Shown here in pieces: positions 50,001 to 53,000 of a DNA stretch of 64,000 nt. A program made the position numbers and the translations under genes. Source of the stretch: Salminus brasiliensis (lineage: Eukaryota > Chordata > Actinopteri > Characiformes > Bryconidae); NCBI RefSeq assembly GCF_030463535.1, contig NC_132896.1, positions 23,603,709 to 23,667,708 on the forward strand, read 5' to 3'. How positions within the stretch are numbered: position 1 is the stretch's first letter; each line of letters opens with the position of its first letter. The notes under the pieces were generated by a model, which did no database searches, had not been told where the DNA came from, and was given only the letters and a program-made list of their open reading frames with translations.

Positions 50001-53000
50001 AATGAGTAACAAAGTTTGAATTGAGTTGGGTGCAAAGCCAAGAGTATAAATATTGGCGGTGCACAGACAGCAGGTTTTTGTAACGGTCCAAAGAAGTGCT
50101 GGGGAGTTCTGAATAACAAATATAAAACCCTGACTTTCTGGTATTTGCCTGCTAGATATATTGACTGGGAAACTTCTGCTTTGCTCACTGGTAAAATCCT
50201 TAACCCTGAGCCCTAAAACTGACTAATCAATGCATAGCTGCCCTAATCACTCTCAGTAAAGCAACATTAGTGTTGACATTTTGAGTTCTCCCTTTTTTCT
50301 TTTATTTTGATGCTTCAGCCATTTCTTAATCATTTCATCTTCTCTGTCTCTGTTGGAGGAGGGACTTTATTTGTCAGTCTCACCCCATTTTCCTTTCAAC
50401 AACTAGGGAATAAGAGTAGAATATTTGCTAGGGAAAGTTAGGACTGTCACTATGGTTTTGACGCTGGTCTCCGCTGACCTTCTGTTGCTTCTTAGCCAGA
50501 TATTGATGACACATGACACAAACTCGACTCGGACTGTATGCGAATTCATGAAACGTATTTGCATCTGTTGGTCTTTGTAAATTTGGAATTTCAGATGTGA
50601 CCTTTGCTGTCTAAATGTCAGGAGGGAGCGAAGGCAGCAGTTGGAGAGCGTTGTCTCTGGTTTATGTAACAGTCCTCGCCACATCAGTGAGACAGCAAAC
50701 AAGCTGGCATGACCAAGGCTCACATATTTAGACCATAATTTGAAATACTGTCTCGGTATCTCAGTATATCATAAGCACATATGCAGGCCTAATTGGCTGA
50801 ATATATTTATATTTGTTCGTATGTTAAAAATGAGCCTTCTTAAGGATACAGGATGTACAGGATGTTTTAATATCTCCTAACTGTTTTTTTCTGCACAACT
50901 GCACAACCTGATTTTTTTTAAACACATTCTACCTGTGTTGTTTAATATGATCATAACATGTTTATTTCATAATACCTGTATCATTCATCTGATCACTGGT
51001 TGCTAAGTAACAAAAATGGTTGCTTTACTCCAAACAGTACTACTGAAACTACTTTATTTGGAGGTATATTTATACCAATATTTTTAAAATACATTGGAAG
51101 AAATGAACATACTTGCCACCAAATTAGAAATAACAAATGACCTTGGGTTTTCTATTGCTCAAACAATACATTATAGTACATTTTGTTACAAGGAAACTGG
51201 GAATGCAAAGAGTAAAACATTATATTAGCCAAAACTGGCAATTCATGGGGACTAAGCATTTGTCACGTTAGCCTTAGTATAGCAATGACATAACAGTGCC
51301 CTTTGTTGATCAGTGTTTACTAGTCTTTGCAGGCTCCATCAATTGCTTAGCGACAACAGGACAACACAGTTAATTCATTGTACTGTATGGTAAAAATTGC
51401 CAGTAACTTGTGCATTTTATTGTTTTTCATAGAGTTCAGTCAATTTAATTCTCTAAACAGAGTATGAGATATTGTGATTTAACCTAACTGGCATTTGACT
51501 GGGGAATGTACAGCTCCCTGCCAATTAAAATCAAATTTGACATGCCCCTTAAAATTGACTGTACACATTTGTTATGTTTGGTCAAAACCGGACAATGCAT
51601 CAATATGTTTTAGTTTAAGTGAGTTTGAAATGCCCCGGTCAAACTATTAAAATTACAGATTGGGGGCATATTGTTTTCTTTCATTCCTGGGCAGCAACAG
51701 AGAATGCACTCAATGAGCAGTTTATTAGGAATATTAGGTGGGTCCCCTTTTGCTCTCAAAACATAAGAAAAATGGTTACAACAATGTTGGTGAAACATTC
51801 AGGGCATATTTTAGCAGAACTGCAGCTTACTTGTGTTTTTCTTTATTGCACAATTCTAAGTAAACTCTAGAGACTGAGGTGCATCCCAGATCCTCGACTA
51901 GCCTGTCTAGCACCAAAAACCATGCCTTAAAAACGGATGACTTTGTCAGTGATTTTAGAGAGCTCTGAGAACTCTAAAAGGGCTCAGTGACATGCAGTAA
52001 GTGCTTTTGAAGACACAGGGATCGCTTATATTGATATGTAGTTAGTGATTATAAACATACATATACTGACTTACGAACATGTGCTTATGAACATGCAAAG
52101 AGCGCTTATTGGTTAGCAGAGAGCGCGTATGAACATCCAGAGAGACCCTAATATTCGGAGAACACGTATGAACATTGAGAAAGCGCTCGTTAACACAGCG
52201 TCCGTCTCACGCTGCAGAAGCGCGCAGCTGCAGCCACACGTCGTGCTTGCCGTAGAGAAATATCGCTGCTGCTGCTGCTGCTGCTCCTGCCATTGATGCG
52301 CGCGCACCGGTGTCCATCTAAGCGACACTGAAAAAAAAACAAACAACAAAAACAAAAGCCGCCAGAAAACACCGGCTGGCGTCCGCCCGCCTCAAAGCCA
52401 AACGAGCCGAGCGTGCCGAACAGACGCTGAATGAGGATGACGATGGTGAGGCTGCTGCTTGTTCTTCTGTTTGCCTGCATTGCCTCTTAAAGGCGTACGA
52501 AGACCAGAAATCAGGGTCGAGCGTGCGCGCCTCAAGGTTCGCGTCGCGGTTATCATGGTGGCTGCACGAACAGTTACGCAGATCCCAGGTTGACCACAGC
52601 GCGCGACCTGCCCGCACAGCCGCCGCTCGAGCATTACAGCCTCCTGCATTGCACCATGACCTTGGACGTGCAGACCGTGGTGGTGTTCGCCGTGGTCGCC
52701 ATCCTCGTGCTCGTGAACGTGATACTCATGTTCTTCTTGAGCTCCTATTAAAAAAAACAGCGGATTTTGGGGGTGCTACCCAGCGGGACATTTACAGCGA
52801 AGCGGGGACTCCCGGCGACCCGGCAATGGCAACACGGATACGTTGGTATTTCATTATAGCCTACACCCCCTTCCCACAGTCCCCTTTATTTTCTGCTGTC
52901 TTGTCTCACAGACATTTCTGTTAACGCACGCGCTCGTATCGTCGCAGCTGCACGGTCTCAGTGGCCAGTTAGTTCTGGTCAATAGGTTGCTCTCCTTAAG

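What the first reader, a model, noticed from the sequence alone, without database searches (positions are those of the whole stretch)
52656..52751. A 31-residue transmembrane microprotein in a CpG island inside the arhgef9 intron
The ORF has a good start context, G/C-ending codons, one clean hydrophobic helix and a tidy stop, inside an isolated CpG-rich island. Standard gene finders drop ORFs this short. It could be an independent gene nested in the intron or a product of a 5' leader. This is my best candidate in the window for something undescribed.
Basis: partly seen in the sequence, partly recalled or inferred. Interest (0 to 1): 0.75.

Follow-up and report, generated by a model that had tools for sequence, protein, structure and literature searches.

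The report
Candidate tiny membrane protein, arhgef9 intron
A fish-like genome carries, apparently just inside the first intron of the synapse gene arhgef9, a very short reading frame that looks more like a real one-helix membrane protein than like chance, but no related species or expression data could be checked here, so it remains a candidate.

Summary
The ORF is exactly as stated: 52656-52751 (+), 31 residues. It is the most hydrophobic of 600 ATG-ORFs of 20-100 aa in the window; 0 of 3000 island and 1 of 200 whole-window Markov versions reach it. 27 of 29 degenerate codons end in G/C (15.8 expected; 1 of 100,000 simulations), and its codon-phase G+C contrast is the highest in 64 kb. It is not a tandem repeat. 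The CpG island is not isolated: it probably is the arhgef9 promoter, with a predicted exon-1 donor at 52446, so the ORF lies in intron 1, 210 nt past exon 1. The arhgef9 ohnolog does not keep the ORF; a 16-nt match there is not significant. No second copy was found in the genome, and no Pfam or PDB relative. Resemblance to sarcolipin does not beat shuffles. Best reading: a coding ORF for a single-helix microprotein from a transcript of the arhgef9 island. Transcription, translation and conservation in other species are untested. At most a new member of a known kind.

The parts
52656..52751 (+). 31-codon [34 protein letters not shown] (candidate single-helix microprotein; helix about residues 5-30)
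   Evidence: no second copy found in own genome
52101..53100 (.). CpG island, likely arhgef9 promoter and predicted first exon
52431..52445 (+). predicted coding end of arhgef9 exon 1 (MRMTM), followed by donor GTGAGG at 52446; its 5' end is not known
   Evidence: the ohnolog has a similar ending (MMKMM, GTGAGC), but inside an ATG repeat
52446..57717 (+). predicted arhgef9 intron 1 for the island promoter; it holds the ORF
55016..55060 (+). predicted alternative arhgef9 first coding exon ([15 protein letters not shown]) with donor GTAAGA at 55061
57718..57897 (+). arhgef9 SH3 exon ([16 protein letters not shown]...)
53478..53483 (+). AATAAA 727 nt after the stop; a possible poly(A) signal for a single-exon transcript, of little weight since AATAAA occurs 80 times on this strand of the window

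Best explanation
The ORF is a genuine short coding sequence for a 31-residue single-pass membrane microprotein. Shown by sequence: the frame, one uninterrupted hydrophobic helix, codon structure not explained by chance or by a tandem repeat, and a place in a CpG island upstream of the arhgef9 SH3 exon, 210 nt past a predicted exon-1 donor. Inferred: it is made from a transcript that starts within the island downstream of the main arhgef9 start site (a nested short gene or an alternative first exon), or from arhgef9 RNA that keeps intron 1. Also inferred, from general knowledge: a chain this short ends before its helix leaves the ribosome tunnel, so it would be inserted after translation (tail-anchor-like, EMC or GET type), and it would act by side-to-side helix contact with a larger membrane protein. 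The partner is unknown; co-expression with arhgef9 in neurons is only a guess from the shared island.
For: Top of 600 window ORFs for hydrophobicity; 0 of 3000 island and 1 of 200 window Markov versions match. 27 of 29 degenerate codons G/C-ending, 1 of 100,000 simulations. Highest codon-phase G+C contrast of all 93-nt windows in 64 kb; of the best 40 windows printed (62 reach 0.70), 24 start at 52640-52664 and 16 at 10277-10292, the latter inside a coding exon (PF10146 zf-C4H2, E 9.8e-23). No tandem repeat; lag-3 self-identity 0.37 against 0.64 for the ohnolog's ATG repeat. Single helix in the model. Promoter-like island.
Against: No transcript, ribosome or peptide data and no cross-species comparison. 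Not kept in the arhgef9 ohnolog, where the equivalent place yields an ATG-repeat ORF of even higher hydrophobicity (3.63), a warning that such ORFs can arise without function. The codon choice is no likelier under coding usage of the window than under island composition (log ratio -0.83 nats). Phase contrast is in part a consequence of hydrophobicity (T at second positions). Upstream ATGs precede it if transcription starts at exon 1. No Pfam match above cut-off, no PDB match. It was chosen after the fact for being hydrophobic.
Confidence: 0.55

Rival explanations
1. Chance ORF: a non-coding stretch of a G+C-rich promoter island that happens to read as a hydrophobic helix in one frame.
For: Not present in the ohnolog; a hydrophobic ORF from a triplet repeat stands at the same place in the ohnolog; ORFs of at least KD 2.0 appear in 97 of 3000 island versions; no preference for the window's coding usage (-0.83 nats).
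Against: 0 of 3000 island versions reach the observed value; G/C-ending codons 1 in 100,000; no repeat origin.
Confidence: 0.25
2. Regulatory ORF of an alternative or intron-retaining arhgef9 transcript: the act of translating it, not its product, tunes arhgef9 output.
For: Same strand, same island, 210 nt after the predicted exon-1 donor and upstream of the SH3 exon.
Against: The predicted donor removes it from the spliced leader. Donors after the ORF are weak: of the 25 best printed, the only one in 52752-53100 scores 3.0, and the next is 5.6 at 53129; but a genuine arhgef9 exon donor at 60310 scores only 3.7 by the same matrix, so this is soft. A regulatory ORF does not need a clean membrane helix.
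Confidence: 0.15
3. Unrecognised exon of a longer protein (arhgef9 or other) rather than a free microprotein.
For: Strong phase signal; the area holds predicted alternative first exons.
Against: The frame has its own ATG and stop, and none of the 25 best donors in 52001-55200 lies inside it.
Confidence: 0.05

Closest known systems
Sarcolipin and the SERCA-binding regulins (phospholamban, myoregulin, DWORF)
   Same: 31 residues like sarcolipin, one membrane helix, local match around VILM ([12 protein letters not shown] to IVLITVILMWLL)
   Different: The match does not beat shuffles (167 of 5000 full shuffles and 1315 of 5000 helix-only shuffles score as high); no K, R or H at all; no LFxxF (motif recalled); the PDB search found no match
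Single-pass membrane microproteins of vertebrates (known class; PMC8818594 seen in passages only)
   Same: ORF under 100 codons, one helix, of the size ordinary gene finders drop
   Different: Here there is no translation or conservation evidence. No paper found describes it, judged from listings and starts of abstracts; UniProt, RefSeq and Ensembl could not be searched
Upstream ORFs in 5' leaders
   Same: Short ORF between a promoter island and the main coding sequence, same strand
   Different: Lies after the predicted exon-1 donor, hence intronic in that model

Membership tests
Single-pass membrane microprotein | ORF under 100 codons with ATG and stop | tested here: met
Single-pass membrane microprotein | one membrane-length hydrophobic helix | tested here: met
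   KD 3.24; helix 5-30, pLDDT 96.4 from a single sequence
Single-pass membrane microprotein | selection on the amino-acid sequence between species or paralogs | tested here: inconclusive
   absent from the ohnolog; 16-nt start match not significant; no other species searchable
Single-pass membrane microprotein | transcribed and translated | not testable with these tools
   no RNA or ribosome data held
SERCA-binding regulins (sarcolipin type) | sequence similarity beyond hydrophobicity | tested here: not met
SERCA-binding regulins (sarcolipin type) | LFxxF-type motif (recalled) | tested here: not met
SERCA-binding regulins (sarcolipin type) | binds SERCA | not testable with these tools
   no binding data
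Upstream ORF of arhgef9 | lies in the spliced 5' leader | tested here: inconclusive
   predicted donor at 52446 puts it in intron 1; no transcript data

The most novel reading that the evidence does not exclude
An undescribed vertebrate membrane microprotein shares the arhgef9 (collybistin) promoter island and is co-expressed with it, so that one island makes both an inhibitory-synapse organiser and a small helix that modulates a neuronal membrane protein. The ohnolog lost it, leaving at most the start region (TGCATCGTGACCTTGG), a match that on its own is not significant.
Probability: 0.12. Interest if true: 0.75.

Novelty: new member of a known kind. Interest (0 to 1): 0.45.

Why it matters
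Membrane microproteins of about 30 residues are easily missed by annotation, and several regulate ion pumps (PMC8818594, passages). One that shares a promoter with collybistin, a protein of inhibitory synapses linked to epilepsy (recalled), would be a direct, testable candidate. The case also holds a caution: the ohnologous island produces a more hydrophobic ORF from a plain ATG repeat.

Tried and rejected
Tandem-repeat origin of the ORF: rejected. Sarcolipin homology: rejected as a claim. Second copy in the genome: none found by protein (the first look gave 1 candidate) or by DNA of 52446-52990. Relic in the ohnolog: the best local match is 16 nt at the start codon region, TGCACCATGACCTTGG against TGCATCGTGACCTTGG; 64 to 201 of 1000 shuffles do as well, depending on query length and on which side is shuffled, so not significant; the rest of the intron (961 and 977 of 1000) and the part after the ORF (177 and 289 of 1000) show nothing either, and the two predicted first exons do not align better than shuffles (249 of 300). 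Best tblastn match of the protein in 70 kb of the ohnolog region (E 0.021, 24 residues) lies in a frame with no ATG between the preceding stop and the match; dropped. Prokaryote genome collection scanned with two degenerate patterns in the hope of stray fish DNA: 0 and 0 stretches. Viral contigs with one pattern: 2 stretches, with the same unrelated frame in both. Rfam over 48000-58000: 0 matches at gathering score. Paper searches by peptide string found 0 papers each. arhgef9 with microprotein, micropeptide, small open reading frames, PhyloCSF gave 2, 1, 0 and 0 papers, none on this by title (listings and abstract starts only). Of the broad searches, the 9 papers and the 40 listed of 939 do not contain arhgef9. 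The listings (8 of 3,989; 4 of 4) name nothing on this ORF. I do not claim that it is unpublished.

Full report
What is there. The window lies on contig C19 of a 1.07-Gb genome in 103 contigs; that it is a teleost is inferred from the size and the two arhgef9 copies, not shown. The protein has one acidic residue and no K, R or H, a helix from residue 5 to 30 in a single-sequence model (mean pLDDT 96.4), and an asparagine within the helix.

More than chance? Of 600 ATG-started ORFs of 20-100 aa on both strands of the window it is the most hydrophobic (19-residue mean 3.24; the next is 3.08). None of 3000 first-order Markov versions of the island reaches this value (97 reach 2.0), and 1 of 200 versions of the whole window does. 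Given its amino acids, 27 of 29 degenerate codons end in G or C against 15.8 expected from island base composition, reached in 1 of 100,000 simulations. Codon-phase G+C contrast over 93-nt windows is the highest in the 64 kb; this measure is in part a consequence of hydrophobicity, which puts T at second positions. Of 62 window positions with contrast 0.70 or more only the best 40 were printed: 24 start at 52640-52664 and 16 at 10277-10292, the latter inside an exon that Pfam identifies as zf-C4H2 (PF10146, E 9.8e-23; the gene name zc4h2 is recalled). So the signal is of a size that a true coding exon gives. It is not produced by a tandem repeat: none found at score 30, lag-3 self-identity 0.37 against a mean of 0.32 (maximum 0.50) elsewhere in the island and 0.32 in the zc4h2 exon. 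Against this, synonymous choice is no more like the window's coding stretches than like island composition (log ratio -0.83 nats). The five stretches used have 42 of 60, 47 of 67, 31 of 60, 178 of 279 and 262 of 517 G/C-ending codons, the last being an unproven ORF. And the ORF was picked because it is hydrophobic.

Where it lies. A recalled collybistin sequence matches the window at 57718-57900, 60109-60321, 62030-62209 and 63752-63997 with 82-93% identity and E below 1e-29; two more matches with E above 3 are taken as chance. Of three arhgef9 exons given to Pfam, one matches SH3, one RhoGEF and one nothing. The two best donor sites in 52001-55200 are ATG|GTAAGA at 55061 and ATG|GTGAGG at 52446 (8.9 and 8.8; third 7.1; a simple matrix with recalled frequencies, by which genuine arhgef9 exons score 10.3, 3.7 and 9.3). 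Both would join, in phase, to the SH3 exon: [23 protein letters not shown] and [13 protein letters not shown]. The recalled human isoforms begin ...GM|LITGDSIV and MTL|LITGDSIV. The ohnolog on contig C1 (SH3 exon 93% identical; 8 places in the genome match that exon at E up to 1e-5) has, among 12 CpG islands in the 70 kb read, one about 27 kb upstream with the ending ATGATGAAGATGATG|GTGAGC, giving MMKMM|LVSGGSVV. This is suggestive support only: that ending lies in an ATG repeat, and the two predicted first exons do not align better than shuffles (249 of 300). The island at 52101-53100 is thus best read as the arhgef9 promoter and first exon, and the ORF lies 210 nt inside intron 1, still in the island. 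In that model it is not in the leader of the spliced mRNA. How it would be transcribed is open: a start site within the island after exon 1, or intron retention. If transcription begins at exon 1, seven ATGs on this strand between 52101 and the ORF may precede it. An AATAAA 727 nt after the stop (53478) is of little weight, because AATAAA occurs 80 times on this strand in 64 kb.

Relatives. No second copy was found in the genome by protein (the first look gave 1 candidate) or by DNA of 52446-52990; two looser pattern searches did not complete. In 70 kb of the ohnolog region no ORF corresponds. A 16-nt match covers the start, TGCACCATGACCTTGG here and TGCATCGTGACCTTGG there with GTG in place of the start, followed there by GT-rich sequence; 64 to 201 of 1000 shuffles do as well, so this is only a lead. 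The ohnolog's island also shows how such ORFs can arise cheaply: an ATG repeat gives a 43-residue ORF of hydrophobicity 3.63 with codon-phase G+C 0.39/0.16/0.82. Pfam gives two matches with E 1.2 and 1.8, both below cut-off; the PDB none up to E 10. Other vertebrates are not held by any tool here. Pattern scans of prokaryote genomes found 0 and 0 stretches, and of viral contigs 2 unrelated ones.

Comparison with known kinds. Sarcolipin also has 31 residues and a VILM run in its helix. The alignment (score 35) is equalled by 167 of 5000 full shuffles and 1315 of 5000 helix-only shuffles of the candidate, and LFxxF (recalled) is absent. It may work like a helix-helix regulator, but it is not filed with the SERCA regulins. 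The review PMC8818594 was seen in passages only. The paper searches named in Tried and rejected show no report of this ORF in their listings, but sequence databases could not be searched, and it may already be annotated in other species.

Verdict. I put 0.55 on a genuine coding microprotein, 0.25 on chance, 0.15 on a regulatory ORF of an arhgef9 transcript and 0.05 on an exon of a longer protein. Membrane insertion after translation, a partner protein and neuronal expression are inference.

Noticed in passing
window 58180-58287 (+): A segment inside the arhgef9 intron after the SH3 exon ([36 protein letters not shown]) matches the ohnolog's intron at 51% protein identity, E 2.1e-8, with splice-like ends by eye: a likely conserved cassette exon of arhgef9.
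   Followed up: partly
window 30548-32101 (+): 517-residue open frame, no Pfam match at E 0.001, one place only in the genome at E 0.001, reaching in phase 0 a strong-looking donor AAG/GTAAGA at 32087 (by eye); no significant match in 70 kb of the ohnolog region (best E 1.0). Could be a large coding exon of another gene or of a long arhgef9 form.
   Followed up: partly
window 49466-49540 and 52366-52440: A 75-nt piece of the predicted arhgef9 first exon is duplicated 2.9 kb upstream at 96% identity, ending 5 nt before the exon's end.
   Followed up: no
window 53221-53310: Inverted repeat just after the island: 41-nt arms, 90% complementary, 8 nt between the arms.
   Followed up: no
window 44599-44988 (-): Fragment of a DDE_3 transposase (E 7.7e-12), Tc1/mariner-like by recall.
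   Followed up: no
L016:5265-5396 (C1:27325265-27325396, - strand): In the arhgef9 ohnolog an ATG trinucleotide repeat at the predicted exon-1 donor encodes a 43-residue very hydrophobic ORF.
   Followed up: partly
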